Assembly (NCBI RefSeq): GCF_000590885.1
Contig: NZ_JFHN01000018.1
Span: forward strand, 1-64,000
DNA: 64,000 nt
Direction: 5' to 3'
DNA from: Erwinia mallotivora
GTDB taxonomy: Bacteria; Pseudomonadota; Gammaproteobacteria; Enterobacterales; Enterobacteriaceae
Part shown: positions 25,984 to 46,774 of the stretch, piece by piece
Numbering within the stretch: the stretch's first letter is position 1
Layout: each line of letters begins with the position of its first letter
Translations under genes and position numbers: made by a program
The notes under the pieces: generated by a model
Database searches by the model: none
The model's input: the letters and a program-made list of their open reading frames with translations, nothing else
Told to the model about the DNA's origin: nothing

Positions 25984-26306
25984 CTTAATTACCTCAAAAA
26001 ATCACGTGCTCGGTCAACTTCAGACCCTACCCGCGCTATGAAAAGCGGAGTTAGAGACTAAGAACCGGGGCGGCTTCTGATATCAGAACCGCACTCCCTG
26101 TATCAGAAGCGTCCCGAAGACATTCCGGAAAAAAACAGACGCAGCATTATAGCGGCAACGTCAAAGCGAGTCGAGGCCACACCCACACCCGATTTCAGTA
26201 TCCCGACAAGTTTTGTCTGATAAAACCGTTGAAACCCCAAATCGGGGGGATTTTGTGGCAGGCAGAAAAAAGCGGCCCGCAGGCCGCCAGAGGTAGTGAT
26301 ACGGGA
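25984..26306 (-). other. bolA-tig intergenic region with leader hairpin
   Basis: This 323-base gap holds the bolA terminator at its right end and the tig promoter/leader. The sequence TTCTGATATCAGAA sits inside GCGG...CCGC (26070-26092), making an interrupted palindrome that would fold in the tig mRNA leader. A partial copy (TATCAGAAGCG) occurs about 20 bases further upstream in the leader. No gene recognised. Confidence 0.55.
26265..26287 (-). terminator. terminator of bolA
   Basis: GCGGCC-CGCA-GGCCGC forms a 6-base GC stem followed on the minus strand by TTTTTTC. It lies 20 bases after the bolA stop. Confidence 0.85.
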
Positions 26307-26621
26307 TCACGCCAGAGTACTGGCCCCGCGACAATTGGGTGAGGCCGGAACCGTATCCTGCAACCCCTCCCACTCCTTCCTGGTGTAGGTATGCAGAGCC
26401 AGCGCATGGACGCTGCCAGCCAGTTCATCCGCCAGTACGCCGTAAATAGCACGATGGCGCATCAGAAAACGCTGATTAGTGAAACTGTCGCTGACAATTA
26501 CGACTTTGAAATGGCTTTCTGCACCTGCGGGAACATTATGACGATAGCTCTCGTCATGGACTTCCAGGTGCACGGGAGCAAACGCTGCACTTAACTTTGC
26601 TTCTATTTGTTCGCGAACCAT
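26307..26621 (-). CDS. bolA: BolA family transcriptional/iron-homeostasis protein
   Basis: A 104-residue BolA protein. The class II KH-like fold is marked by [22 protein letters not shown] and the helix [14 protein letters not shown]. The invariant histidine of that last helix is a ligand in BolA-monothiol glutaredoxin [2Fe-2S] complexes. BolA is induced in stationary phase and stress and affects cell shape and biofilm genes. The start [10 protein letters not shown] at 26621 aligns with E. coli; ATG 26636 is an extension. Divergent from yajG. Confidence 0.94.
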
Positions 26622-26788
26622 ACCTTTACTCCTCATGACCGTGAATGACGTGCCTTAACAAGGCGTTACTGGCTGAAAATGCAGGACGATGAATTTACGT
26701 CTTATCAGGGCTTCAACTTGTGAAAAGCGATGTTATGATGACCGCCGTAGTGTCTGCACCACACCTTTAAGTCACCGAGAAAATAAGC

Positions 26789-27367
26789 ATGTTAAAAAAA
26801 ATCATTTTCCCTCTGCTGGCCATCTTCGTTCTGGCCGGTTGTGCAAACAACAGCAACACGCTGACTATTTCCCCAAAAATTCAGTTGCCTCAGCAGGATC
26901 CAAGCCTGGGCGGCGTCACCGTCAGCATTAACGGTGCCGATCAGCGCAGCGATCAGGCGCTGGCAAAAGTGAATCGCGATGGTCAGCTGGTGACGCTGAC
27001 CGCAACCCGCGATCTGCGCTTCCTGCTTCAGGAAGTGCTGGAGAAGCAAATGGGCGCACGTGGCTACATGATTGGACCAAACGGCGCAGTTGACCTGCAA
27101 ATCGTCGTCAATAATCTGTATGCCGATGTCACCCAGGGCAACGTGCGATACAGTATCACTACCAAAGCGGATATTTCTATTATCGCCACCGCCAAAAATG
27201 GCAACAAGCAGGTTAAAAATTACCGTCAGACCTACAGTGTTGAAGGCGCATTTAATGCCACCAACGATAAAATCACCAATGCGGTTAACTCCACCCTCAG
27301 CGACGTAATTTCAGATATGGCTCAGGACACCAGCATTCATCAGTTTATCAGGCAGAATGCCCACTGA
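26789..27367 (+). CDS. yajG: YajG family lipoprotein
   Basis: A 192-residue lipoprotein. The signal MLKKIIFPLLAIFVLAGC ends in a lipobox (LAGC, lipidated Cys18). The mature domain (NTLTISPKIQLPQQ, LRFLLQEVLEKQMGARGYMIG) matches the YajG/LPXTG-free lipoprotein family conserved next to ampG and bolA. Molecular function is unknown; the Asn after Cys (CANNS) does not act as an inner-membrane retention signal (normally Asp at +2), so outer-membrane sorting is likely. ampG follows after 170 bases on the same strand. Confidence 0.9.
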   Translation: MLKKIIFPLLAIFVLAGCANNSNTLTISPKIQLPQQDPSLGGVTVSINGADQRSDQALAKVNRDGQLVTLTATRDLRFLLQEVLEKQMGARGYMIGPNGAVDLQIVVNNLYADVTQGNVRYSITTKADISIIATAKNGNKQVKNYRQTYSVEGAFNATNDKITNAVNSTLSDVISDMAQDTSIHQFIRQNAH

Positions 27368-27537
27368 CAGAGGATAGTTTAGTCCTGTTTAGCCAGCCCG
27401 GGCGGGATATCAGCCGTTACCGCAGTGGGCTTAAGGGATCGTCAGGGATGACGCTTAATCTTTTCAAGTTGCCGTCGCATTCTGAGCCAGTAATCCTGTG
27501 ACGTCTTACGCCTGACGCAGCGTGCTTTAAGGTTCTT

Positions 27538-29016
27538 ATGACCCGTCATTATCTGCAAATTTTTACCCAACGTAATGCCGCCCTGCTGCTGGTGCTGGGC
27601 TTCGCTTCTGGTTTACCCCTTGCACTGAGTTCCGGCACCTTGCAGGCATGGATGGCCGTGGAAAACGTCGATATTAAAACCATCGGTTTTTTCTCGCTGG
27701 TCGGTCAGGCTTATGTTTTCAAGTTTCTCTGGTCGCCGCTGATGGACCGCTATACTCCGCTTTTTTCAGGGCGGCGTCGCGGCTGGCTGTTGGTGACGCA
27801 AATCCTGCTGATAATCGGCATTGCGCTGATGGGGTTTATGCAGCCCTCGCGTGATTTGACGCTGCTGGCCGCGCTGGCCGTGCTGATTGCCTTCTGTTCC
27901 GCATCCCAGGATATCGTTTTCGACGCCTGGAAAACCGATGTGTTGCCCGCAGAAGAACGGGGCAGCGGCGCAGCGATTAGCGTACTGGGCTATCGTCTGG
28001 GCATGCTGTTTTCCGGCGGGCTGGCCTTGTGGATTGCCGATCGTTATCTCGGCTGGCATGCCATCTGGTGGCTGATGGCGTTGATGATGGTTCCGGGCGT
28101 TGTCGCCACCCTTATCGCCAGAGAGCCGGATAGCGCCATCGCCGTACCGGCAACGCTGGAAGAAGCGGTCATCGCCCCGCTGCGTGATTTTTTTAATCGC
28201 AATAATGCCTGGCTGATCCTTTCGTTAATTGTCCTTTATAAGCTGGGAGATGCTTTTGCCCTCAGCCTCACCACGCTGTTTCTGATTCGTGGCATGGGAT
28301 TTGATGCCGGAGACGTTGGCCTGATTAATAAAACGTTGGGGCTGAGCGCGACCATCCTGGGTGCGTTAACTGGCGGTGTGCTGATGCAGCGCATGAGCCT
28401 TTTTCGTGCGCTGATGCTGTTTGGCATCCTGCAAGCCGTCTCTAACCTCGCTTACTGGGGACTGTCGGTCACCGACAAACATCTGTACAGCATGGCTGCG
28501 GCGGTATTTGTGGAAAATCTGTGCGGCGGTATGGGCACGGCAGCTTTTGTCGCCCTGTTAATGACATTGTGCAATAAATCCTTTTCAGCCACGCAGTTTG
28601 CCCTGCTCTCTGCACTGTCAGCGGTGGGCCGGGTGTATGTTGGTCCCCTCGCGGGCTGGCTTGTCGAAGCCTGGGGATGGTCGAACTTTTATGCCTTTTC
28701 AGTGCTTGCGGCCCTGCCGGGTCTGATGCTGTTAGCAGGATGCAAAACCACGCTTACACGGGCACAAAGCGGCGAGGATTTTGCCGTCCGTACGCATTTC
28801 CCCCAGGGCTACCGTTGGGCATTACACGCGCTGAAAACGGGGGCAATGCTGATAGCGGTGGGGCTGATAATGCTGGCACTCAGGGCAACCGGGCTGTTCG
28901 ATGCAGGTAAAGCAATTGGCCTGCTGTGGCAAAGCGGCATGGCGCTGGCAACGCTTGGGATTGTCTGCGGTAGTATGCTGGACTATCTGGCCCTGCAAAA
29001 ACCATCTTCCCGCTGA
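27538..29016 (+). CDS. ampG: muropeptide permease AmpG
   Basis: A 492-residue major-facilitator protein with about 14 membrane helices that imports GlcNAc-anhydroMurNAc muropeptides for cell-wall recycling, and thereby affects AmpC beta-lactamase induction. Strong family blocks include LGFASGLPLALSSGTLQAWM, FKFLWSPLMDRY, SQDIVFDAWKTDVLP and VENLCGGMGTAAFVALLMTL. The ATG at 27538 matches the E. coli N-terminus, although the ribosome site (AAGG) is weak. It converges on the TonB-dependent receptor gene with only 18 bases between stops; in E. coli the next gene would be cyoA. Confidence 0.95.
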   Translation: MTRHYLQIFTQRNAALLLVLGFASGLPLALSSGTLQAWMAVENVDIKTIGFFSLVGQAYVFKFLWSPLMDRYTPLFSGRRRGWLLVTQILLIIGIALMGFMQPSRDLTLLAALAVLIAFCSASQDIVFDAWKTDVLPAEERGSGAAISVLGYRLGMLFSGGLALWIADRYLGWHAIWWLMALMMVPGVVATLIAREPDSAIAVPATLEEAVIAPLRDFFNRNNAWLILSLIVLYKLGDAFALSLTTLFLIRGMGFDAGDVGLINKTLGLSATILGALTGGVLMQRMSLFRALMLFGILQAVSNLAYWGLSVTDKHLYSMAAAVFVENLCGGMGTAAFVALLMTLCNKSFSATQFALLSALSAVGRVYVGPLAGWLVEAWGWSNFYAFSVLAALPGLMLLAGCKTTLTRAQSGEDFAVRTHFPQGYRWALHALKTGAMLIAVGLIMLALRATGLFDAGKAIGLLWQSGMALATLGIVCGSMLDYLALQKPSSR

Positions 29017-29034
29017 ATACCGGGCTGGCAGCGT

Positions 29035-30996
29035 TTAAAAACGGTATTCAATGCCAGCCCAAAATTGCCTTCCCGGTTCGACAAAGCCTTCGGTCAGTTC
29101 ATATTTTCTGTCGAAGACATTTTTAATTGCCGCGTTCAAAGTAACCCCTTTGCCCGTCAGCAGATCCATGCGCAGATGGCTTATCGCATAGCCTGCGGCC
29201 CGACGTGTGCCCCCACTGTCACTGTCGCTGGCAGAGCGCGCTTCTTCGGTCAGCGTCAGGCTCCAGTTATCATTTGGGGCAAAGGTCACCCAGCTGGTCA
29301 GCGTCTGCGCAGGCAGATCGGTGATATTACCCGCTGAACGCTGTTTTACCCGATGATTGATGCCGCCATAATTCAGGCCCACTTTTACTTTTTGCCCGAC
29401 AGCGCCGTGCAGACCGATATCCAGACAGTAATAGTCCACCTCGCCACTGTTGCGGTTCTGGACCGTTTGCGCATCAATATCAATACTGAGAATGGCCCGA
29501 CTCAGGCGTTGGTAACAGGTGCTGAGTTCAAGACGCCACGCCGGTGTAATCACGGCGCTCCAGCTTAAATCAACACCGAGCGCGCGCTCTGGCCTGAGAT
29601 GTGGATTGACTAGCGCACTCAGGGCATAAGCCGGACGCGAGGTGGTATAGCGTTCCTTCAGCGTCGGAAAGCGAGTGCGATCAAACAGCGTAAAGGAGAG
29701 CGCATCCCCACCCGTAAAGTGGTATCTGAACATGCTTTGCCAGTTAAACGCTCGCTGACGGTTAGACGCGTAACGAGTGATGCTGCCGTCACTTTCATGT
29801 TTCAGACCTTCCCGGCTGTCCCGCCAGTCATAGCTGAAGCCCGCCACCACCTCCAGCATCTCCGTTGCTGCCCACTGATATTCCGTCGCCAGCGACCAGG
29901 TTCTGTCGGCATAGCGATCGACCGGCCCTTTTTTAGCGCTTTTTTCCCGGTGAACGTCATCTTTCCAGTGAGCGGCAAAAGAGAGCAAATCGCCGTCACG
30001 CAGTCCGGCAGAGAGCTGTAACGCAGCCCCGTTGCTGTAGTCATCATAATGGCTGTAACTTCCCTGCTTTTTTTGTCGGGCGGCAGCGGAGTTATACATC
30101 AGCAGGGTATTCCTGAAAGTGTCGTGATAAAGGCGACTTTTCAGTGAAAAAACGTCGTTGAGGCGTGAATTTCCCTGATAGTAAAGGCTTTGTTTGTCAT
30201 ATTCCGGCCACTGCCAGTAACGCGACTGAACATTGCCGTTTCCGGCCCAGGGCGGACTGTTTTTTTCACCCTGTTGGTTATTCCAGCTGAAAAGATACTC
30301 ATCACCCTCACGAGGGGTCCACCCGAGCCTGACCAACCCATGATTATCCTCAGAGGCCGAATTATCCCGTCGGCCATTTTTTCCGGCAGTTCGATTGCTG
30401 ATCCCCTGAGGCAGAGCGGTAAAGTCCGTTTTTAACTGGCTGGCGCTGAGTTGCAGAAATCCGCTTTCGCCTTTCATTCCCAGCGAGGCATGACTTTCTC
30501 TGGCATTCGCTCCCGCCCGGCTCCATCCCTGACGAACGCCAACGCGTCCCTCAAGGCTTTTCTCTGGTTTGCGGCTGGCGAGATTAATCGATCCGCCCAG
30601 CTGATTCGGCCCCTGCAATAACGAGGTGTAGCCTTTGGAAACCTCCAGCGAGGAGAGATCGGCGCTCAGGAAGCGTCCCAGATCGAGATTGCCATCGTAG
30701 GGGATATAAACCGGAATACCGTCGAGGTAAACCGGTACCTGGCGGCTGTTGAAGCCCCGAACCCTGACCTGCATTTCGTTACGGTTTCCCGATTTCTCCA
30801 GCGTTACTCCGGCTACGGTCGCCAGTGCTTCCGCAGCATTATGTTTTTCCAGCTGGGTTATGGTCTCTGCGGTCAGTATGTCCCGACTGGCGGCAACCGG
30901 GCTTGACCAGACTTCCAGGGTCGGTTCCGCCGCCAGCAGCCTGCCGAAAGAGGCCAGAGCGAGGATGAGAAACAGATTGAAAAATGACGTTTTCAT
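29035..30996 (-). CDS. TonB-dependent outer-membrane receptor, substrate unknown
   Basis: A 653-residue receptor. The signal peptide (to about LLAAEP, residue 24) is followed by a TonB-box-like stretch (LEVWSS), a plug domain (about 40-150; VRVRGFNSRQVPVYLDGIPVYI, VSKGYTSLLQGPNQLGGSINL) and a 22-strand barrel ending in the usual aromatic GIEYRF. It is not one of the classical ferrichrome, enterobactin, haem or B12 receptors. It is the last gene of a six-gene operon with an Fe-siderophore-type ABC importer, a ModD-like enzyme and a methyltransferase, so it probably brings the same substrate across the outer membrane. A molybdate/tungstate complex or metal chelate is inferred, not shown. ATG preceded by AGGGAAAAG. 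Confidence 0.85.
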   Translation of the reverse strand: MKTSFFNLFLILALASFGRLLAAEPTLEVWSSPVAASRDILTAETITQLEKHNAAEALATVAGVTLEKSGNRNEMQVRVRGFNSRQVPVYLDGIPVYIPYDGNLDLGRFLSADLSSLEVSKGYTSLLQGPNQLGGSINLASRKPEKSLEGRVGVRQGWSRAGANARESHASLGMKGESGFLQLSASQLKTDFTALPQGISNRTAGKNGRRDNSASEDNHGLVRLGWTPREGDEYLFSWNNQQGEKNSPPWAGNGNVQSRYWQWPEYDKQSLYYQGNSRLNDVFSLKSRLYHDTFRNTLLMYNSAAARQKKQGSYSHYDDYSNGAALQLSAGLRDGDLLSFAAHWKDDVHREKSAKKGPVDRYADRTWSLATEYQWAATEMLEVVAGFSYDWRDSREGLKHESDGSITRYASNRQRAFNWQSMFRYHFTGGDALSFTLFDRTRFPTLKERYTTSRPAYALSALVNPHLRPERALGVDLSWSAVITPAWRLELSTCYQRLSRAILSIDIDAQTVQNRNSGEVDYYCLDIGLHGAVGQKVKVGLNYGGINHRVKQRSAGNITDLPAQTLTSWVTFAPNDNWSLTLTEEARSASDSDSGGTRRAAGYAISHLRMDLLTGKGVTLNAAIKNVFDRKYELTEGFVEPGRQFWAGIEYRF

Positions 30997-31035
30997 GATC
31001 TTTTCCCTGATCGATGGCGGCCACCCGCCCAGGCG

Positions 31036-31887
31036 TTATCCGTCTGAGGGTTCCATCACCACAGCAAGATCTGCCGGAGCCGCATGATAAGGCGCCGAAG
31101 TCACCAGCAACCCCACACCGGTCTGCGCCCAGGCTTCAACGTTATCCAGCGTAATCCCCCCCGCAACGGCAAGCCGACAGGAAGGCGCAATTCTTGCCGC
31201 AAGCGGCTGTAGCTGTAATACCTGCTGCGTGGTGAACTTGTCCATTTGCAACACATCCGGCAGAGCCTGCAAGGCCGTCTCTGCCTCCTCCGGGGTGGCG
31301 ACTTCAACAACGATCGCCTTTTCCGGTGCCTGCTGGCGCAGTCTGACCATCATCGCCCCCCAGTCCTGTGGCTGAGGGTAAAAACGGCGATGGTTGGCGA
31401 ACAGCAGCACCGTTTCCGCGCATCCTGCACGATGAATAATGCCGCCACCGTCCAGCACTGCCTGCATCGACAGCAGCCGGGTGCCGGGGATGATTTTACG
31501 GGTACAGGCGATCTGCCCGTGTGCCACATAACGTTGCAGCCGCTGGCGTAGCTGATAAACATAATTTGCCACGCCACAGCTCCACTCGAGCAGATTCTGG
31601 ACTGCTTTCCATCCCTGATGCAGAGCCGCTGCCTGGCCGGTTGCACACAGCAGGCTGGCCCCTGCTGCCACCACCTCACCATCACTGACCGCATATTCAA
31701 TATGCAGATCCAGACGCTTGAGTATGCGTTGTGCCAGAGCCAGCGCACTGACACAGCCGCCCTGCCGGTGAATAAAGGTCATTCTCCCCCGCTGCCCGCC
31801 AATACCCAACGCCCGGCAGGTCAAATCACCCCCCTGGATATCCTCCAGCAACCACAGGTCAAGCTGAGCGTCGGGTATAAAAATCAT
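31036..31887 (-). CDS. modD: ModD-like nicotinate-nucleotide pyrophosphorylase homologue
   Basis: A 283-residue protein of the NadC (quinolinate phosphoribosyltransferase) superfamily in its ModD branch. The N-terminal LLEDIQGGDLTCRAL corresponds to the NadC dimer/substrate region, ACTRKIIPGTRLLSMQAVLDGG to the active-site TRKT..PG..L..K.AV..GG block (ModD-type: TRK-IIPG), and the barrel ends in VAGGITLDNVEAWAQTGVG. ModD is found beside molybdate transport genes, but its reaction is unproven. Its Met starts inside the methyltransferase stop (ATGA), so it is translationally coupled. Its presence is the main reason to suspect molybdenum or tungsten, or a pyridine-carboxylate-type ligand, as the operon's substrate. 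Confidence 0.8.
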   Translation of the reverse strand: MIFIPDAQLDLWLLEDIQGGDLTCRALGIGGQRGRMTFIHRQGGCVSALALAQRILKRLDLHIEYAVSDGEVVAAGASLLCATGQAAALHQGWKAVQNLLEWSCGVANYVYQLRQRLQRYVAHGQIACTRKIIPGTRLLSMQAVLDGGGIIHRAGCAETVLLFANHRRFYPQPQDWGAMMVRLRQQAPEKAIVVEVATPEEAETALQALPDVLQMDKFTTQQVLQLQPLAARIAPSCRLAVAGGITLDNVEAWAQTGVGLLVTSAPYHAAPADLAVVMEPSDG

Positions 31888-32564
31888 TCTGCCTCCCGTA
31901 AAGCACAGCGTTGCGGTTGCCAGGAGAGCACCGCCCAGTCGCGATGCGCAGGGTCGCGGATAAAATCCACCTGCGCCTGAATACCCATCTGCCAGAGCAC
32001 GTTAACCGCATAGATATAGTTGGGCAGCTCATCATCCTTGTTTCCCTCCCCCGCTGAGCACGTCGAACCAAAAAAGCCACTGACGCTGTGAGTGGTAACG
32101 ACCCACAGACGGGCATGTTGATTCAGCTTTAACATGGCCGCACGCAGATCGCCGACCAGCGTGGAGCGCGATGCGACCGCAATATCACACACCGGCACAT
32201 CGTGCCAGCTGTCCTCCCAGGCACGGTGCAGCAAGGTAACGTTGTTTAATCCCATTGCGGCCGCCTTCTGCCTGGCGACCGCCAGCATCCCTGCGCTGTA
32301 ATCGATTCCCCATACCTGCTGCAATCGTGAAGCGACATGCAGGCAGACCGTTCCTGGCCCACATCCCGCATCCAGCAGCGTGGTGGCTCCGGTGAAATCA
32401 ATGCGCGAAAGCAATTGTTGCAGATAGGGACTGTCAGGGCGGGCGCAGCTGACCGCCATTTCTACGGCTCTGCTGTCCCAGTACTGCGGACTTTTTTCGC
32501 TGCGTTTTGCCTGTCGCAGCTGCTGCTGGTAAAGCGCAGCGAAATCAATATTATCAATCAGCAT
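31884..32564 (-). CDS. class I SAM-dependent methyltransferase
   Basis: A 226-residue Rossmann-fold methyltransferase. Motif I (TLLDAGCGPGTVCLHVA, about residues 62-78) binds S-adenosylmethionine; the following VWGIDYSAGMLAVAR holds the acidic ribose-binding residue, and ALVSRST-like motif IV is VCDIAVASRSTLVG. The acceptor substrate is unknown. It is embedded between the ATPase gene (overlap of seven bases) and modD (four-base overlap), so it is expressed with the importer and probably acts on the imported compound or a ligand. Confidence 0.85.
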   Translation of the reverse strand: MLIDNIDFAALYQQQLRQAKRSEKSPQYWDSRAVEMAVSCARPDSPYLQQLLSRIDFTGATTLLDAGCGPGTVCLHVASRLQQVWGIDYSAGMLAVARQKAAAMGLNNVTLLHRAWEDSWHDVPVCDIAVASRSTLVGDLRAAMLKLNQHARLWVVTTHSVSGFFGSTCSAGEGNKDDELPNYIYAVNVLWQMGIQAQVDFIRDPAHRDWAVLSWQPQRCALREAE

Positions 32565-33337
32565 GATATTTTCTCCCGCGGTCGATCGTGCAGATTCAGA
32601 TGCCGGCAGATCTCTTCTGCCTTTACCTGATAAAGATGCGCCAGCGAGGAACTGGTTAACATGACATCCGGCGATCCCACCTGTACGCCTGCCGTGGGAC
32701 TGACAAACGCCACCCGATCGGCAATGATCCGCGCATGAACAGGGTGATGAGTGGCAATCAGCAACGTCATTCCGCTGACTTTCAGCTGACGGATTTTCTC
32801 CAGCAGGGCAATCTGATGACCAAAATCCAGGCTGGAAGCGGGTTCATCCAACAGCATCAGCACAGGCTGCTGCACCAGCGCACGGGCAATCATTACCAGC
32901 TGACGCTGGCCGCCACTCAGGGTGGAATAAAGACGCTGTTCCAGTCCGGCAATCCCCAGCGCGGCGAGGGTGTCACGCGCCTGTTGCCGCTGCTTTGCTC
33001 CGGGCGATGCCAACCTGCCCAGTCCGGCGACGCTCCCCATCATCACCATATCCAGCACGCTGAAAGCAAACGGACTGGTATGCGACTGAGGCACCCAGGC
33101 AACCATCCCGGCCCGCTGTCTGGCTGACCACTCGCGCAGTTTTTTTCCGGCAAGGATAATCTCACCGGCCAGCGGCTTCAGCACACCCGCCACGCTACGC
33201 AACAGGGTACTTTTCCCGCTGCCGTTTCCGCCTAACAGGCAACAGACCTCCCCTGAGCGGATACTGAAATTCACCTCATGCAGGATGCTGACATCCTGAT
33301 AACCCAGGCTTACGCGATCAAACTTAACTAAGGTCAT
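32558..33337 (-). CDS. ABC importer ATP-binding protein (FecE/MolC type)
   Basis: A 259-residue ATPase of the siderophore/B12/molybdate class II importer group. Walker A is GGNGSGKST, Q-loop WVPQSHTS, signature LSGGQRQL, Walker B VLMLLDEPASSLD, and the switch histidine is in IATHHPVH. It pairs with the FecCD-type permease whose stop overlaps its start (ATGA). The Haemophilus MolBC importer for molybdate/tungstate belongs to the same class, which fits the modD neighbour, but the sequence does not separate it from iron-siderophore ATPases. Confidence 0.88.
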   Translation of the reverse strand: MTLVKFDRVSLGYQDVSILHEVNFSIRSGEVCCLLGGNGSGKSTLLRSVAGVLKPLAGEIILAGKKLREWSARQRAGMVAWVPQSHTSPFAFSVLDMVMMGSVAGLGRLASPGAKQRQQARDTLAALGIAGLEQRLYSTLSGGQRQLVMIARALVQQPVLMLLDEPASSLDFGHQIALLEKIRQLKVSGMTLLIATHHPVHARIIADRVAFVSPTAGVQVGSPDVMLTSSSLAHLYQVKAEEICRHLNLHDRPREKISC

Positions 33338-34326
33338 TTTCTCCCTCCCTGAAGCAGCAACAGCAGAAAAAAGGGGGCTCCCACAGCAGAAGTCAGGATC
33401 CCCAGCGGCAACTCTATGGCCCCGATACTTCGTGCCAGGGTGTCAGTCAGCAGCAAAAAAATCCCGCCTGCATACAAAGAAGCCGGAAGCAGCCGCAGAT
33501 AACTGGCTCCCACTATCAGCCGACAAATATGCGGCACCACCAGCCCCACCCAACCGATGATTCCGGCAATGGAAACCGCACTGGCCGTCACCAGGGTGGC
33601 ACTAACGATAAACAGGACGCGCAGGCCAGAGACATTCATTCCCAGCGACTGTGCTTCTTCATCCGGCAGACTGAGCAGGTTGATGCGCCAGCGCAGCAGC
33701 AATAAAGGAAATAATCCGCTGATGATCCCCGCGGCCGCCACGCTCAGATCATCCGGAGTAATCGCCGACAGTCCTCCCAGCAGCCAGAAGGTGATGGTGG
33801 CCAGCTGCGTATAGGGATCGGCAATAATCTTAATCAGCGAAATGGCCGCGCCGCACAACGAGGCCATTGCCATACCGACCAGCACCAGCGACAACACCGC
33901 ATCATGACGGCGAACCGTGCCCGCAATCAGACTGGAGAAGGTGACAGTCAGTAACCCGCCGATAAAGGCCAGCAACTGAACAATCATCATCGGCATCGCC
34001 AGCCAGATAGCCAGACTGGCACCCAGTCCGGCTCCGGCGGCAACGCCGAGAATATCCGGTGAGACTAAAGGGTTGCGAAAGATCCCCTGATAGGCCGCAC
34101 CGGCAGCCGACAAACCCGCCCCAATCAGTAACGCGGCCAACACTCGCGGCAGACGGATTTGCCAGAAAACTACCGCCAGTTGTGGTGGCTGAGTCGTTAC
34201 CTCCGGATTAAAAACCAGGCCGATCATTTGCGTCAGCGTCAGCGGAAATGCCCCGGTCCCCAGCGAAATAGCCAGGCAAAACAGCAGGCCCGCTGCGGCA
34301 GACAGCCAAATCAGAACCCGGCTCAT
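33334..34326 (-). CDS. ABC importer permease (FecCD family)
   Basis: A 330-residue membrane protein with about ten helices of the FecCD/BtuC/MolB family. Family blocks include FWQIRLPRVLAALLIGAGLSAAGA near the N-terminus, NPLVSPDILGVAAGAGLGASLA, and GWVGLVVPHICRLIVG near the end. It forms the inner-membrane channel of the class II importer. I start at 34326 (MSRVLIWLS) because this ATG overlaps the binding-protein stop as ATGA, like the other junctions in the operon; the frame also contains ATGs at 34341 and 34350. Confidence 0.87.
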   Translation of the reverse strand: MSRVLIWLSAAAGLLFCLAISLGTGAFPLTLTQMIGLVFNPEVTTQPPQLAVVFWQIRLPRVLAALLIGAGLSAAGAAYQGIFRNPLVSPDILGVAAGAGLGASLAIWLAMPMMIVQLLAFIGGLLTVTFSSLIAGTVRRHDAVLSLVLVGMAMASLCGAAISLIKIIADPYTQLATITFWLLGGLSAITPDDLSVAAAGIISGLFPLLLLRWRINLLSLPDEEAQSLGMNVSGLRVLFIVSATLVTASAVSIAGIIGWVGLVVPHICRLIVGASYLRLLPASLYAGGIFLLLTDTLARSIGAIELPLGILTSAVGAPFFLLLLLQGGRK

Positions 34327-35354
34327 ACGGTATTCAGCCATTGCTGCCACTGACTGCTCTGCGGCTCAGACTGCCAGAACACCCTGAAAAACAGCGCAAG
34401 ATCCCCGGCAAGCCGGGCTTTTATCTGTGGGTCAAAATGGGCATGTAAACGACGTAATCCCATCAGTCGGTTTACCCCGGGCGGCGCGTCCAGCCAGCCG
34501 AATGGATGATGGGGTAACAGCAACACCTGTTGGTGCTGTACTGCGCTGATCTGCTGCCAGAGGGGATCACGGGTGATGTGTTGCCAGGCCGGACGACTTT
34601 GGGTGATCACCAGCTCCGGTTGCCAGTCCAGCAACTGCTCCATGGATACCTGAGCAAGGCGGGATTGGCCCACCTGTTTTGCGACATTTTCCAGCCCAAG
34701 AAACTCAGCGGCGGCCGTGTGTAATGAGCCTTCCAGCCCGGTTTCCTGCCCTTTCAACCCGCGAGCCGAATAAAATGTGCGCCTGACCGTCTGCCGGGCG
34801 GCAAAATCCGCTGCCTCGTTGAGGAAACGTTCTGCCAGCCGGGCCTGTCTCTCAGCCCTGTCAGCCACCCCAAGTAGCGCGCCCAGCTGTCGCAACTGGC
34901 GTGGGGTGGAGGCCAGACCGCCTTCCACCAACACCCACGGGATACCGGTTTGCGCACTGACCCGCCCCGCCAGAGAGAGATACGTGGCATCGGTCATACC
35001 ACAATCAATAATCACATCCGGCGCGATTGCCATTACCCGTTCCAGTGACAGGGTGCTGGCTCTGCCCGCCAGGCGACCCGTTTTGGGCAACCGGCGCATC
35101 TTCTCTGGCAAAAATTCATTACCCGGCTGTGCCAGTTGATAAAAAGACAATCCGACCAGTTTTTCTGCCGCCAGCGCCAGCAGCAGGGGATCACCGGGCG
35201 CACCGGCGCTCAGCACAGTGTGAATACGTGAAGGAGGAGGAAGCCTGCCAAAAATGAACAGACCAGGTTCAGCGGCCAGGAGGTGTGCGGGCAGAACCGA
35301 AAGCAGGGTGCTGGCAGCGAGAAAGCCAGCGAGTCGACGTCGGGTGATATCCAT
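34323..35354 (-). CDS. ABC importer periplasmic binding protein, Tat-type signal
   Basis: A 343-residue class III (siderophore/B12/MolA-like) binding protein. The N-terminus MDITRRRLAGFLAASTLL has twin arginines in the context of a Tat signal, suggesting export in folded form. The domain then reads as two Rossmann-like lobes joined by a helix (PDVIIDCGMTDATYL in the first lobe, WQPELVITQSRPAW and HPFGWLDAPPGVNRLMG in the second). Ligand residues cannot be assigned. It is the first gene of the operon and its promoter region holds a palindrome and a Fur-like site. Confidence 0.82.
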   Translation of the reverse strand: MDITRRRLAGFLAASTLLSVLPAHLLAAEPGLFIFGRLPPPSRIHTVLSAGAPGDPLLLALAAEKLVGLSFYQLAQPGNEFLPEKMRRLPKTGRLAGRASTLSLERVMAIAPDVIIDCGMTDATYLSLAGRVSAQTGIPWVLVEGGLASTPRQLRQLGALLGVADRAERQARLAERFLNEAADFAARQTVRRTFYSARGLKGQETGLEGSLHTAAAEFLGLENVAKQVGQSRLAQVSMEQLLDWQPELVITQSRPAWQHITRDPLWQQISAVQHQQVLLLPHHPFGWLDAPPGVNRLMGLRRLHAHFDPQIKARLAGDLALFFRVFWQSEPQSSQWQQWLNTV

Positions 35355-35374
35355 ATCAGCTCCAGTAAATCGTT

Positions 35375-35386
35375 CGCTATATAGCG
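35375..35386 (-). promoter_or_regulatory. 12-base palindrome, possible operator of the TonB/ABC operon
   Basis: CGCTATATAGCG is a perfect palindrome 21 bases upstream of the first gene of the operon. Its half CGCTATAT resembles the half-site of the molybdate regulator ModE, but the two halves overlap rather than being spaced as in known ModE sites. The regulator is unknown. Confidence 0.35.
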
Positions 35387-35391
35387 GAATA

Positions 35392-35410
35392 CATAATGGT
35401 AATCACTTTT
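35392..35410 (-). promoter_or_regulatory. Fur-box-like site upstream of the TonB/ABC operon
   Basis: On the minus strand AAAAGTGATTACCATTATG matches 13 of 19 positions of the Fur consensus GATAATGATAATCATTATC. It lies 38-56 bases upstream of the first start codon, a plausible promoter position. Iron control is therefore possible. Confidence 0.45.
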
Positions 35411-36048
35411 GCCTGTTGTCAATGGTGAAATGATAACGGATGTCATCAGAAAGTGATCTCCGCCACAATCCGGATATTGCCGGAGAAATCTGGCTGTACG
35501 CTGCGGTTCCAGCGCGGAAAAATCCGGGCGAAGGACGCGAAATGAAGGACGAATTGGCCTGATGCAGGCTGATATAAAACCTGGCAAATTGCACGCTTTC
35601 TGGTCAGCCAATGTGACCATGCTGACGGGTAATCAGCAATTGTTAACATTTTTCCCGCTGGCGTAATCGGTCGCACGCCAGGTTATTTCTTAAAAGATTT
35701 TACAGTTTTACCCCATTTCAAAGAGAATATTAAAAACCGGTGCGTTATTATTCCGCTTTAATTTTCCCCATTAAATGATGCAGATTTGTTAAATATTTGA
35801 GTGGTAAATTCTCTGGTTATAGCAACCGCTTTTTCATAAAGGGTTTTCACATCATTTTTTGTTATATTCATGCCAACCCCCTGCGTTTATTAATATTTTG
35901 TCACCTAAAGCAACATCTGTGACAGCCTTTGCAAAAGGTGTCTACACGCCGCTGACACAAGTTTCTGCTGGTTTACAGTAATGAAACCTTCCCGTAAAAT
36001 GCCGCCACACTTAAACGACAATAGAGCCCTTGTCATTGAGGTCGTTAA
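35411..36048. other. long divergent region upstream of cyoA
   Basis: Together with the operator region this is about 690 bases between the divergent TonB/ABC operon and cyoA. The left third is GC-balanced and contains short open frames without ribosome sites. The right part (from about 35690) is AT-rich, as expected for the cyo promoter, which in E. coli is repressed by ArcA and Fnr. A weak ArcA-like TGTTAAATA is present at 35787-35795. No gene recognised. Confidence 0.45.
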
Positions 36049-36975
36049 ATGAGACTCAGGAAATACAATAAAAGTTTGGGGATTTTGTCATTAATTGCAG
36101 GCACTTTATTGTTAAGTGGCTGTGATAGTGCATTGTTAAATCCCAAAGGACAGATTGCACTGGAGCAACGTTCGCTGATACTGACAGCCTTCGGCTTGAT
36201 GATGATCGTCGTAATTCCGGCAGTCTTGATGGCCGTGGTCTTCGCCTGGAAATATCGGGCATCGAATACTGAAGCCAAATACAGTCCGAACTGGTCACAC
36301 TCTAATAAAGTGGAAGCCGTGGTCTGGACCGTTCCCATTTTGATTATTCTCTTCCTTGGCGTTCTGACGTGGAAATCAACTCACGCGCTTGAGCCGAGCA
36401 AACCGCTGGCATCCAATGTCGAGCCGGTTGAAATCGATGTGGTGGCACTGGACTGGAAATGGCTGTTCATTTACCCGAAACAGGGTATCGCTACCGTCAA
36501 TCAGATCGCTTTCCCGGCCAATACGCCAGTAAATTTCAAGATCACCTCAAACACCGTGATGAACTCCTTCTTCATCCCAACGCTGGGTAGCCAGATTTAC
36601 GCGATGGCAGGAATGCAGACCAAACTGCATCTGATTGCCAACGAACCTGGTACATTTGACGGTATCTCCGCTAACTTCAGCGGTCGAGGCTTCTCCGGTA
36701 TGAAGTTTAAAGCGATTGCCACCCCGGATCAGGCTGCCTTTGATCAATGGGTTGCAAAAGCAAAACAATCATCCAACACGCTTATGACAATGGATGATTT
36801 TGAGAAACTGGCTGCGCCGAGCGAAAACCATCCGGTTGAGTTCTACTCTGCTGCTAATCCTGAACTGTTTAAACAAGTTATTGGCAAGTTCAAGATGAGC
36901 CACGGGAAAATGGACATGCCCGGACACGAAGGCATGGACATGAGCGAAGCCTCTCACGCGGGAGCCGAGGAATAA
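36049..36975 (+). CDS. cyoA: cytochrome bo ubiquinol oxidase subunit II
   Basis: A 308-residue lipoprotein subunit. The signal ends in a lipobox (LLSGC), two membrane helices follow ([18 protein letters not shown] and [18 protein letters not shown]), then a periplasmic cupredoxin-fold domain that lacks the CuA ligands, as normal for quinol oxidases. The C-terminal tail is Met/His-rich ([19 protein letters not shown]). First gene of cyoABCDE, the high-aeration proton-pumping terminal oxidase. Confidence 0.97.
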
Positions 36976-36979
36976 TACG

Positions 36980-38971
36980 ATGTTGGGAAAATTAACCCTT
37001 GATGCAGTTCCGTACCACGAACCGATTATCGTGGTGACGGTTGCCGCCATCCTACTTGGTGGACTGGCTATTGCTGGAGCAATCACTTATTTCGGTAAGT
37101 GGCAATACCTGTGGTCAGAATGGCTGACGTCTGTTGACCACAAGAAACTCGGTATCATGTATATCATCATGGCCTTCGTCATGCTGCTGCGTGGCTTTGC
37201 CGATGCAGTGATGATGCGTAGCCAGCAGGTGCTGGCTTCTGCGGGTGAGGCCGGATTCCTGCCGCCCCATCACTATGATCAGATTTTCACCGCCCACGGC
37301 GTGATCATGATCTTCTTCGTGGCGATGCCATTCGTGGTCGGCCTGATGAATATCGCCGTTCCTTTGCAGATCGGTGCGCGCGACGTTGCTTTCCCGTTCC
37401 TTAACAACCTGAGCTTCTGGTTCACGGCTGTGGGCGTGGTGCTGGTTAACCTGTCGCTGGGCGTGGGCGAATTTGCTCAGACCGGCTGGCTGGCCTACCC
37501 TCCCCTCTCCGGCGCGGAATACAGTCCGGGGGTAGGCGTTGACTACTGGATATGGAGTCTCCAGCTGTCGGGTATTGGTACGACATTAACCGGGATTAAC
37601 TTCTTCGTTACTATCCTGAAAATGCGTGCGCCAGGCATGACTATGTTCAAGATGCCGGTATTTACCTGGGCATCTCTCTGCACCAACGTATTGATTATCG
37701 CCGCCTTCCCGGTACTGACCGTGACGCTGGCGCTGCTGACTCTTGACCGTTATCTGGGCTTCCATTTCTTCACTAACGAAATGGGCGGCAACATGATGAT
37801 GTACGTCAACCTGATTTGGGTATGGGGTCATCCGGAAGTGTACATTCTGGTGCTGCCGGTGTTCGGTGTGTTCTCCGAAGTAGTGGCAACCTTCTCCAAA
37901 AAGCGTCTGTTTGGTTACACCTCGCTGGTATGGGCAACGATCGTTATTACCATCCTGTCCTTTATCGTCTGGCTGCACCACTTCTTCACCATGGGTGCGG
38001 GTGCCAACGTGAATGCCTTCTTCGGTATTATGACGATGATCATCGCCATTCCGACCGGCGTAAAAATCTTTAACTGGCTGTTCACCATGTACCAGGGACG
38101 CATTCAGATGCACTCTGCCATGCTGTGGACCGTCGGCTTCCTCGTCACCTTCTCCGTTGGGGGAATGACCGGGGTACTGCTGGCAGTGCCAGGTGCTGAC
38201 TTCGTTCTGCACAACAGTTTGTTCCTGATTGCTCACTTCCATAACGTCATTATTGGTGGTGTGGTATTTGGCTGCTTTGCCGGCGTGACCTACTGGTTCC
38301 CGAAAGCCTTTGGTTTCTGCCTGAACGAAAAATGGGGCATCCGTGCCTTCTGGTTCTGGATTATCGGCTTCTTTGTTGCCTTTATGCCGCTGTATGCACT
38401 CGGCTTTATGGGCATGACCCGTCGTCTGAGCCAGAACATTGACCCGCAGTTCCATCCATTGCTGGTGGTGGCTGCCTGTGGTGCCGCGCTGATCGCCTGT
38501 GGCGTGCTCTGCCAGGTGATTCAGTTCTGGGTTTCTGTCCGTGACCGTGAGCAACTGCGCGATCTGACAGGCGATCCATGGGGCGGACGTACGCTGGAGT
38601 GGGCAACCTCTTCACCACCACCGTTCTATAACTTTGCTGAAGTGCCGGTTATCCACGAGCGCGATGCGTTCTGGGAAATGAAAGAAAAAGGTGAAGCTTA
38701 CAAACAGCCTGCTCAGTATGCCGAGATTCACATGCCGAAAAACAGCGGCGCAGGTGTGGTGATCGGTGCATTCAGCCTGGTATTTGGTTTCGCCGCTATC
38801 TGGCACATCTGGTGGCTGGTGGGTCTGTCATTCCTTGGCATGATTGTCTCCTGGGTCATCAAGAGCTTTGATCAGGACGTTGATTACTACGTTCCCGTTG
38901 CCGAAATCGAAAAAATCGAGAATCAGCACTTTGACGAAATTAGCAAAGCAGGTCTGAAAAATGTCAACTGA
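36980..38971 (+). CDS. cyoB: cytochrome bo ubiquinol oxidase subunit I
   Basis: A 663-residue haem-copper oxidase core, the same length as E. coli CyoB. It carries haem b, haem o3 and CuB. The CuB ligands are in [14 protein letters not shown] (with its cross-linked His-Tyr pair) and WLHHFF, and the haem ligands lie in the [10 protein letters not shown] region. It reduces oxygen to water while pumping protons. Spacing of four bases from cyoA and an 11-base overlap with cyoC show one operon. Confidence 0.98.
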
Positions 38972-45611: not shown

Positions 45612-46118
45612 TCAGACGCCGATGGGCTGATAGCCCTGCCATTCCGGCACAAACCGCGCACCGGATTCAGACGGGGTGAGATGGATGTAAAGATTGCCGA
45701 GCTTTTCCAGCAGCAGGCAGTCATCGACATCTTTAAGGTTATCTTTGTGCTGTTGCAACGCGCCATTCAGCAGGCTCGCCAGGCCACGGGCTTTCGCTTC
45801 TTTCATGTTTTTTGCCACAAAAAAATCAAAAGCATGTAACTCTGCCAGGCTGGAAGGATGATAACCTCCGGCGTTGACAAACCAGAGTCGCATGGCCTGA
45901 TCATCCGGCGGCGTCGCGCGCAGACTGATCGTGTAACCATCCGCCCATCTCACTCTGGCGTAACCATCGATGTGTATCTTATCGGGGTCGCCAAACCAGG
46001 CTTCACGCAGTGCAGGCCAGGCATCTTCCGGCTTGTCAGCCGCAACAAACTGGATGTCATGAACTTCAATATTCGATTTCCCGGCATTACCACCCAGGTA
46101 AAAAATATACAAATACAC
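45612..46118 (-). CDS. DUF1543 domain protein
   Basis: A 168-residue protein with two repeats of the DUF1543 pattern: YLYIFYLGGNAGKSNIEVHDIQFVAA at the N-terminus and FVNAGGYHPSSLAELHAFDFFVA in the second half. The biochemical role of this domain is unknown. I place the start at the GTG at 46118 because AGGA lies ten bases upstream and the domain begins there; the frame itself extends to 46193, inside the preceding LysE gene. It is the last gene of an operon with a LysE-type exporter and a YqcI/YcgG protein. Confidence 0.78.
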   Translation of the reverse strand: MYLYIFYLGGNAGKSNIEVHDIQFVAADKPEDAWPALREAWFGDPDKIHIDGYARVRWADGYTISLRATPPDDQAMRLWFVNAGGYHPSSLAELHAFDFFVAKNMKEAKARGLASLLNGALQQHKDNLKDVDDCLLLEKLGNLYIHLTPSESGARFVPEWQGYQPIGV

Positions 46119-46132
46119 GTCAGCTTCCTGTA

Positions 46133-46774
46133 TCAGAGGGACCTGTGCGAAATCAGGCTCGCTATTTCGAGTACGTTGTATATCACCCCACATAACGCCA
46201 CGCCAAGTAAAAACAGGGAAGAGGTCAGCTCAATGGTTCTGCCGTGACGGGATGGCATCCACCGTTTAACCGTCAGAATATAGAGCGTAAGAATGGCAAA
46301 ATCGAAGAAAATCCACACCACGCACAGCGTCATGATACTGGTGCTGAAATCACGCGTTACCGCAATAAACTGTGGGAAGAAAGAGACGAAGAACAGAATA
46401 TCTTTCGGATTGGCAATGCCGGTCATGAAGCCGCGAAAGAAGCCGCCGCGGTGGTTTATTGCCGGTTTGACCGTCGGGCCATCCTGTGCTGGGCGGCTCA
46501 ACAGGCTCTGAAGCGCGGTATAGCCAATGTAAAGCGATCCGGCCACGCCGGTCAGCCACAGCCAGACCGGCGAGAGTGAAACAACCCCTTTCAGGGTCAG
46601 CGTAGCCAGTGCAATAAGCACCAGCGATGCGCCGTTAGTGCCCACCGCCGTGGCAAAAGCGCTGCGATAGCCATAACGGGCAGCCGTGCCGGTAATCAAT
46701 GCCACTACCGGGCCGGGCGTCAGCAGCAGCATCATGACCGAAAGAATATACGCCCCCAAAAGAGTGATGTTCAT
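46133..46774 (-). CDS. LysE/RhtB-family amino-acid-type exporter
   Basis: A 213-residue membrane protein with six helices. The start MNITLLGAYILSVMMLLLTPGPVVALITGTAARYG contains the family's conserved PGP motif in helix 1, and GIANPKDILFFVSFFPQF is the helix 4 block. Members export amino acids or their derivatives with the proton gradient. Its start overlaps the stop of the YcgG-family gene (ATGA) and a DUF1543 gene follows after 14 bases, so its cargo may be a product of the YcgG protein. Confidence 0.87.
   Translation of the reverse strand: MNITLLGAYILSVMMLLLTPGPVVALITGTAARYGYRSAFATAVGTNGASLVLIALATLTLKGVVSLSPVWLWLTGVAGSLYIGYTALQSLLSRPAQDGPTVKPAINHRGGFFRGFMTGIANPKDILFFVSFFPQFIAVTRDFSTSIMTLCVVWIFFDFAILTLYILTVKRWMPSRHGRTIELTSSLFLLGVALCGVIYNVLEIASLISHRSL

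What the first reader, a model, noticed from the sequence alone, without database searches (positions are those of the whole stretch)
29035..35354. Six-gene TonB receptor/class II ABC importer/methyltransferase/ModD operon with unknown substrate
Seen in the sequence: six genes on one strand with overlaps at four junctions (ATGA three times), encoding a Tat-signal binding protein, FecCD-type permease, ATPase, SAM methyltransferase, ModD-like NadC homologue and a TonB-dependent receptor, inserted between ampG and cyoA, which are adjacent in E. coli. Known: ModD occurs with molybdate transporters, and Haemophilus MolBCA is a class II molybdate/tungstate importer. Inference: this is an outer- and inner-membrane uptake pathway for a chelated metal or oxyanion in which a phosphoribosyltransferase-like enzyme and a methyltransferase process the ligand or the cargo. 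Coupling of ModD and a methyltransferase to a TonB receptor is the least explained part of the window.
Basis: partly seen in the sequence, partly recalled or inferred. Interest (0 to 1): 0.75.

Follow-up and report, generated by a model that had tools for sequence, protein, structure and literature searches.

The report
Molybdenum-controlled TonB uptake operon
A six-gene outer- and inner-membrane import system that has been filed under iron in E. coli and its relatives carries the DNA switch of the molybdenum regulator ModE, so it most likely scavenges molybdenum (or tungsten) bound to small organic molecules.

Summary
The six genes are real and form one operon (29035-35354, minus strand), absent from this ampG-cyoA site in 3 of 3 other genomes of the genus in my draw. 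A ModE (molybdenum regulator) box lies at 35373-35400, 18 bp before the first gene. In 80 named relatives, 98 ModE-like sites (17 or more of 22 positions) occur in 1.57 Mb: 54 labelled before the binding-protein gene, 35 before the TonB receptor, 6 before the methyltransferase, 3 elsewhere. Fur, Zur and NikR patterns show no excess. In a distant relative a modE gene sits beside the receptor. 2,102 of 5,426 complete E. coli genomes have matching DNA; it is the 'prrA-modD-yc73-fepC' cluster, proposed in print for iron uptake. Best reading: a ModE-repressed, TonB-dependent importer of chelated molybdenum/tungsten. The methyltransferase, not ModD, is the constant enzyme: ModD is missing from 9 otherwise complete clusters. 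That the two enzymes break the chelate inside the cell is inference; a methyltransferase-ModD pair also exists without the transporter. Known cluster, new assignment; no experiment was done.

The parts
35373..35400 (.). ModE box: TTCGCTATATA-GCGGAA-TACATAATGGT, 18 of 22 positions of the E. coli consensus ATCGCTATATA-N6-TATATAACGAT; 18 bp before the binding-protein ATG
   Evidence: consensus printed in PMC2700814; only exact match of CGNTATATAN6TAYATAA in the 4.64 Mb genome (pattern recalled and written after seeing the site)
35393..35422 (-). promoter-like TTGACA-18-CATTAT (10 of 12); its second hexamer lies inside the ModE box
   Evidence: 4 such sites in the 801-base region against a mean of 1.9 in shuffles, so weak alone; same element in L082
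34323..35354 (-). class II ABC importer binding protein (Peripla_BP_2), Tat-like signal by eye
33334..34350 (-). FecCD-type permease
   Evidence: PF01032, 4e-81
32558..33337 (-). ABC ATPase
   Evidence: PF00005, 4.3e-32
31884..32564 (-). class I SAM-dependent methyltransferase; the constant partner; lacks about 50 residues near the C-terminus found in 18 of 18 aligned relatives; short (219 aa) also in Pantoea sp. BAV 3049
   Evidence: model pLDDT 87.5, generic class I fold
31036..31887 (-). ModD, divergent relative of NadC; keeps Thr-Arg-Lys, His-Arg, Glu, Asp of NadC but has K94, F163, K217, S264 where own NadC has R, K, N, G
29035..30996 (-). TonB-dependent receptor (plug 34-135, barrel match 217-627); no close solved relative by sequence

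Best explanation
This is a ModE-controlled scavenging system for molybdenum (possibly tungsten) bound to a small organic ligand. Proposed working: when cell molybdate falls, ModE leaves the box at 35373-35400 that sits over the promoter-like element just before the first gene, and the operon is switched on. The TonB receptor brings a molybdenum chelate across the outer membrane, the binding protein hands it to the FecCD-type permease and ATPase, and the chelate enters the cytoplasm. There the methyltransferase, helped in many species by the phosphoribosyltransferase-like ModD, alters donor atoms of the ligand so that Mo(VI), which unlike Fe(III) is not readily released by reduction, is set free. 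Shown here: the operon, its conservation, the ModE boxes at two fixed places, co-occurrence of receptor and methyltransferase. Inferred from family knowledge: the transport route and repression by molybdate-loaded ModE. Pure inference: the cargo as a chelate and the ligand-breaking role of the two enzymes.
For: The box at this operon is the only exact match of the short pattern in the own genome. Of four other matching places in the own genome whose wider surroundings I fetched, three lie before molybdenum-type genes: modABC and moaA (NCBIfam cut-offs passed) and a WtpA-like binding protein (below its cut-off); the window's site scores 18 of 22 against 16, 18 and 19 there. In the 80 named loci, 54 of 63 regions before the binding protein have 17 or more of 22; of 916 regions before other ORFs 29 do, and those 29 loci each have a second site before the receptor. 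Of 98 sites in 1,567,920 bases, 54 were labelled before the binding protein, 35 before the receptor (one of these, L156, is really before a decayed binding-protein gene), 6 before the methyltransferase, 3 elsewhere. All 9 of 9 clusters without ModD, 7 of them Shewanella, keep a site of 18-20. Among 7 loci of distant receptors (30-36% identity) 4 have sites of 16-19, and in L185 a ModE gene (ModE_repress 99.8 bits against 98.5, Mop 116.8 against 55) is divergent from receptor-BP-permease-ATPase-methyltransferase. Fur, Zur and NikR patterns: 0 of 63 above the shuffled 99th percentile. 22 of 22 full-scoring receptor genomes have the methyltransferase. The E. coli copy has a box too, 18 of 22, 22 bp before the ATG.
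Confidence: 0.72

Rival explanations
1. Ferric siderophore (or haem) uptake, as proposed in print for the E. coli 'prrA-modD-yc73-fepC' cluster and as the RefSeq product names suggest.
For: Receptor, binding protein and FecCD families are dominated by iron systems, and the receptor's first solved relative is CirA; cited as possibly mediating iron uptake; labelled 'iron ABC transporter'.
Against: No Fur-like excess in 63 regions; ModE boxes at two places across Enterobacterales and Shewanella; ModD partner.
Confidence: 0.07
2. The enzymes make, rather than break, a ligand: methyltransferase and ModD build a small molybdenum-binding molecule that is secreted and retrieved by the receptor, or kept inside as a carrier.
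For: The enzyme pair has its own ModE box and stands without the transporter in Edwardsiella; biosynthesis and uptake genes often share operons (general knowledge).
Against: Two enzymes of this kind make no chelator known to me; no exporter, ligase or NRPS in the operon; in 9 clusters only the methyltransferase remains.
Confidence: 0.15
3. The cargo is not the metal but an organic compound needed in molybdenum metabolism (for example a pterin or another cofactor precursor) that the enzymes convert.
For: BtuCD-like importers also carry corrinoids; phosphoribosyl transfer and methylation are cofactor-type reactions (family knowledge; weak CpaM and precorrin-methyltransferase hits).
Against: ModE senses molybdate, so the regulation fits metal shortage best; ModD elsewhere sits with molybdate transporters (PMC2700814) or with ABC genes that look like them (L062, L073, L075, no profile run).
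Confidence: 0.06

Closest known systems
E. coli 'prrA-modD-yc73-fepC' cluster (CFT073 island; S-loop#83/OI#55 of O157:H7; GR 9 of BEN2908)
   Same: The E. coli locus between treA and ymgE has the same six genes in the same order, with a ModE box; its methyltransferase is about 59-60% identical to the window's over 90% of the length
   Different: In print it is proposed for iron uptake (passages seen); the window copy sits at ampG-cyoA and has a shortened methyltransferase
MolBCA of Haemophilus influenzae (class II molybdate/tungstate importer)
   Different: MolBCA has no receptor, methyltransferase or ModD in its operon (recalled); sequence match to MolA is partial (5.7e-13, profile positions 156-291)
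ModABC with ModD and ModE
   Same: ModE box; ModD in some species
   Different: ModABC imports free molybdate by a different ABC class and has no outer-membrane receptor (recalled); the own genome has modABC separately
TonB/FecBCD siderophore systems
   Same: Same machine: TonB receptor, binding protein, FecCD permease, ATPase
   Different: ModE-type instead of Fur-type sites; no reductase or esterase in the operon, but methyltransferase and ModD

Membership tests
ModE regulon | ModE-type inverted repeat near the start of the operon | tested here: met
ModE regulon | ModE present in the genome | tested here: inconclusive
   a modE sequence lies beside modABC but reads in two frames in this assembly; ModE_repress 96.6 bits against cut-off 98.5
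ModE regulon | ModE binding and molybdate-dependent expression | not testable with these tools
   experiment needed
TonB-dependent receptor | plug and beta-barrel domains | tested here: met
   both Pfam models over cut-off
class II (BtuCD/FecBCD-type) ABC importer | Peripla_BP_2 binding protein, FecCD permease, ATPase | tested here: met
ModD | TIGR01334 over its cut-off | tested here: met
   360.4 bits against 178.85
NadC (quinolinate phosphoribosyltransferase) | NadC model cut-off and NadC substrate-site residues | tested here: not met
   142.2 bits against 198.4; R120, K187, N238, G282 of own NadC are K, F, K, S in 18 of 18 ModD rows
MolA (molybdate-binding protein) | closer to MolA than to other class II binding proteins | tested here: inconclusive
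   third by profile, fourth by fold and tied with YiuA
iron-siderophore system | Fur box before the operon | tested here: not met
   0 of 63 regions over the shuffled 99th percentile, consensus recalled; the window scores 14 of 19, equal to that percentile

The most novel reading that the evidence does not exclude
A molybdophore uptake system with chemical release: because Mo(VI) is not freed by reduction, the cell methylates (and, where ModD is present, phosphoribosylates) donor atoms of the imported ligand, for example of catechol or pyridine-/quinoline-carboxylate chelators, to break the chelate. This would give ModD and the methyltransferase their first functions and make molybdenum piracy a common trait of gut enterobacteria, including about 39% of complete E. 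coli genomes.
Probability: 0.3. Interest if true: 0.87.

Novelty: new variant of a known kind. Interest (0 to 1): 0.7.

Why it matters
A cluster carried by 2,094 of 5,426 complete E. coli genomes at 80% coverage or more, among the rows listed UPEC 536, Nissle 1917 and O157:H7, is annotated as iron uptake; the regulatory evidence says molybdenum. If true, enterobacteria compete for chelated molybdenum (needed for nitrate, formate, DMSO and TMAO respiration; general knowledge) across the outer membrane, and virulence or colonisation work that counts this locus as an iron system needs re-reading. It also gives a direct test of what ModD, whose function is not established as far as I know, does.

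Tried and rejected
MolA as closest relative: the first profile (A4) put MolA on top at 7.5e-64, but one row was a separate binding protein from L066; without it (A5) MolA falls to third at 5.7e-13. Rejected as evidence.

RNA element upstream: 0 Rfam matches over the gathering score in 26000-37000.

Window DNA in E. coli by megablast: no match, a limit of sensitivity; the E. albertii copy found 2,102 genomes.

Promoter overlap as proof of repression: 10 of 57 loci against 4.8 expected, weak.

Literature: ten searches, (0 papers; 20 of 55 listed; 20 of 72; 20 of 100; 15 of 15; 12 of 8,003; 10 of 82; 8 of 993; 20 of 40), 86 (4 of 4). In the rows shown I saw no title or abstract start that links this cluster to ModE or molybdate uptake; the papers themselves were not read, except passages of PMC4999443, PMC2700814, PMC545781, PMC12928451 and PMC1890555. 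In PMC4999443 'ModE' and 'TonB' do not occur as whole words. The ModE survey paper of 2003 is not held and the 1998 CFT073 paper was seen only as a reference. So I cannot say that the ModE link is unpublished.
Full report
OBSERVATION. Overlaps at four junctions are real. The flanks are ampG and cyoA. In 3 of 3 other genomes of the genus in the draw these two are about half a kilobase apart, and MT and receptor are not found in those genomes. Pantoea sp. BAV 3049 (L082) and Erwinia phyllosphaerae (L091, without ModD) have the operon at the same site. Against L082 the six proteins are 69-78% identical with dN/dS 0.11-0.20, dS near saturation. The host is an enterobacterium of the Erwinia/Pantoea kind by these neighbours; its name is not known to me.

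THE REGULATORY SITE. Just before the BP ATG lies TTCGCTATATAGCGGAATACATAATGGT (35373-35400). It fits the E. coli ModE consensus ATCGCTATATA-N6-TATATAACGAT (printed in PMC2700814, passage; nearly the same in PMC545781, passage) in 18 of 22 positions. A shorter pattern recalled by me, and written after I had seen the site, has one exact match in the 4.64 Mb genome, this one, and 13 further rows with one or two mismatches; the backwards control gave 15 rows at the same tolerance, so two-mismatch rows mean little. Short stretches came with all 14 rows; I fetched wider surroundings of four other places: three lie before modA (16 of 22), moaA (18) and a WtpA-like ABC transporter (19); the fourth (C51, L081) was only searched with the operon's proteins, without a hit. 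The rest were not examined.

CONSERVATION OF THE SITE. I used the MT family to draw 80 named loci from 84,980 species genomes (98 relatives found, best 80 kept). By bit-score thresholds on one strand 51 hold all six genes in order, 9 hold all but ModD, 5 hold MT-ModD only, 3 hold BP-permease-ATPase-MT, 10 hold MT alone, 1 is cut at the contig start (L096) and 1 has MT-ModD-receptor with a box directly before MT (L109). Some rows are cut, decayed or have a receptor below the threshold (L150, L151, L156). 63 have a BP; 54 of 63 show a site of 17 or more of 22 in the 230 bases around its start, 56 of 63 show 16 or more. 916 regions before other ORFs in the same loci gave 29 such sites, and each of those 29 loci has a second site before the TonB receptor. 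Over all 1,567,920 bases there are 98 sites of 17 or more: 54 labelled before the BP, 35 before the receptor, 6 before an MT, 3 elsewhere; one of the 35 (L156) is in fact before a decayed BP gene. Over 57 regions with a site of 16 or more (55 named loci, the window, E. coli) the box ends a median 24 bases before the ATG, 55 of 57 within 0-35 bases. Results against: L112, L135, L137, L142, L150, L157, L159 score under 16; the last three are outside Enterobacterales and Shewanella. In 62 named regions and the window, the reversed ModE pattern is also raised in 32 of 63 because the motif is almost palindromic, but its mean is 15.3 against 18.1 (ModE itself: 56 of 63 over the shuffled 99th percentile), and Fur, NikR and Zur patterns give 0 of 63.

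INDEPENDENT LINK. In 369 genomes of the class, 7 have a receptor at 1e-60 or better: the own and 6 distant ones (351-473 bits). With G230 from the family draw I fetched 7 distant loci. 4 of 7 have ModE-like sites of 16-19 (a lower threshold than above) in or next to the start of the receptor gene, and in L185 a ModE gene is divergent from receptor-BP-permease-ATPase-MT, without ModD. L183, L184 and L186 have none of 16 or more. L184 and L188 lie beside solute-binding proteins with sub-cut-off matches to an aminoethylphosphonate family, so the wider receptor family may serve other cargo too.

WHICH ENZYME IS CONSTANT. In a 295-genome draw of the GTDB family, MT is in 31, the receptor in 23 (22 full-scoring plus distant G230), ModD over cut-off in 34. 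All 22 full-scoring receptor genomes have MT and ModD; 27 of 31 MT genomes have ModD. The 33 ModD neighbourhoods other than the window's are: 18 complete six-gene sets (in one, L074, ModD reads in two pieces); 3 incomplete sets (L052 cut at a contig start; L056 with MT-ModD-receptor and a box before MT; L059 without the ATPase, its full receptor elsewhere in the genome); 5 MT-ModD pairs; and 7 ModD without MT: 2 next to ABC transporter genes (L062, L079), 2 next to proteins that look like Fe-only nitrogenase (L073, L075; my reading, no profile run), 3 distant ModD-like (L076-L078). Together with the named loci, MT is the constant partner of the transporter and ModD optional. The MT-ModD pair stands without receptor beside it in Edwardsiella, in 3 of 4 loci with a box of 17 or more, and no full-scoring receptor was found in the two Edwardsiella-type genomes of the draw (G137, G232), so the pair has a molybdenum-linked role of its own.

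ENZYME DETAIL. ModD keeps the Thr-Arg-Lys, His-Arg, Glu and Asp positions of own NadC but in 18 of 18 rows has Lys for Arg120, Phe for Lys187, Lys for Asn238, Ser for Gly282; in QPRTases the Arg and the Lys hold the acceptor's carboxylates (recalled). So phosphoribosyl transfer is plausible but probably not to quinolinate. MT has a standard SAM-enzyme fold; its gap of about 50 residues goes with a short form in Pantoea too (219 aa), and dN/dS 0.12 argues that the short form works.

E. COLI. The E. albertii copy (L115) finds 2,102 of 5,426 complete E. coli genomes at 80-90% identity; the BEN2908 copy gives the same number, 2,094 of them covering at least 80%; 2,096 genomes keep at least 80% of the 121 bases with the box. 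In BEN2908 the locus lies between treA and ymgE. It is the prrA-modD-yc73-fepC cluster, proposed for iron uptake in CFT073 according to PMC1890555 (passages) and 'possibly mediating iron uptake' in PMC12928451 (passages). In the rows shown by ten literature searches I saw no link to ModE; most lists were capped and most subscription journals are not held.

MECHANISM. See best explanation. ModE with molybdate represses modABC in E. coli (recalled); a box this close to the ATG, over a TTGACA-18-CATTAT element here, fits repression, but over 57 regions the promoter overlap is only 10 against 4.8 expected. That a chelate rather than free molybdate is the cargo follows from the TonB receptor: free molybdate passes porins (general knowledge). 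That MT and ModD act on the ligand is inference.

VERDICT. Known cluster, probably wrong substrate in print; regulatory assignment not seen in print in my limited searches; chemistry open.

Noticed in passing
L164 7979-8750 (G000:C75): modE of the own genome reads in two frames, changing near codon 38; sequencing error or a real lesion, not decided.
   Followed up: partly
L080 8542-10283 (G000:C45): WtpA-like binding protein and permease with a ModE box of 19 of 22; I saw no ATPase gene directly after them.
   Followed up: partly
L066 7216-13575 (G238): MT-ModD pair followed, behind a ModE box of 20 of 22, by a second FecCD-type transporter and an SBP_bac_11 solute-binding protein; the binding protein of that transporter pulled the MolA match.
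   Followed up: partly
L073, L075: ModD between genes that look like Fe-only nitrogenase and a molybdate-type transporter, with exact matches of the 24-base ModE pattern elsewhere in the locus.
   Followed up: no
   Followed up: no
L174 (E. coli plasmid record pMS20655A) and 8 plasmid places: The treA-operon-ymgE stretch also occurs on records labelled plasmids.
   Followed up: no
window 46174-46197: A weaker ModE-like site (2 mismatches to the 24-base pattern, under 16 of 22 of the long consensus) at the start of a 193-codon ORF (45612-46193) whose product resembles, by eye, the protein beside the operon in L156.
   Followed up: no
L184, L188: Distant receptor relatives next to solute-binding proteins with weak matches to an aminoethylphosphonate family.
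   Followed up: partly
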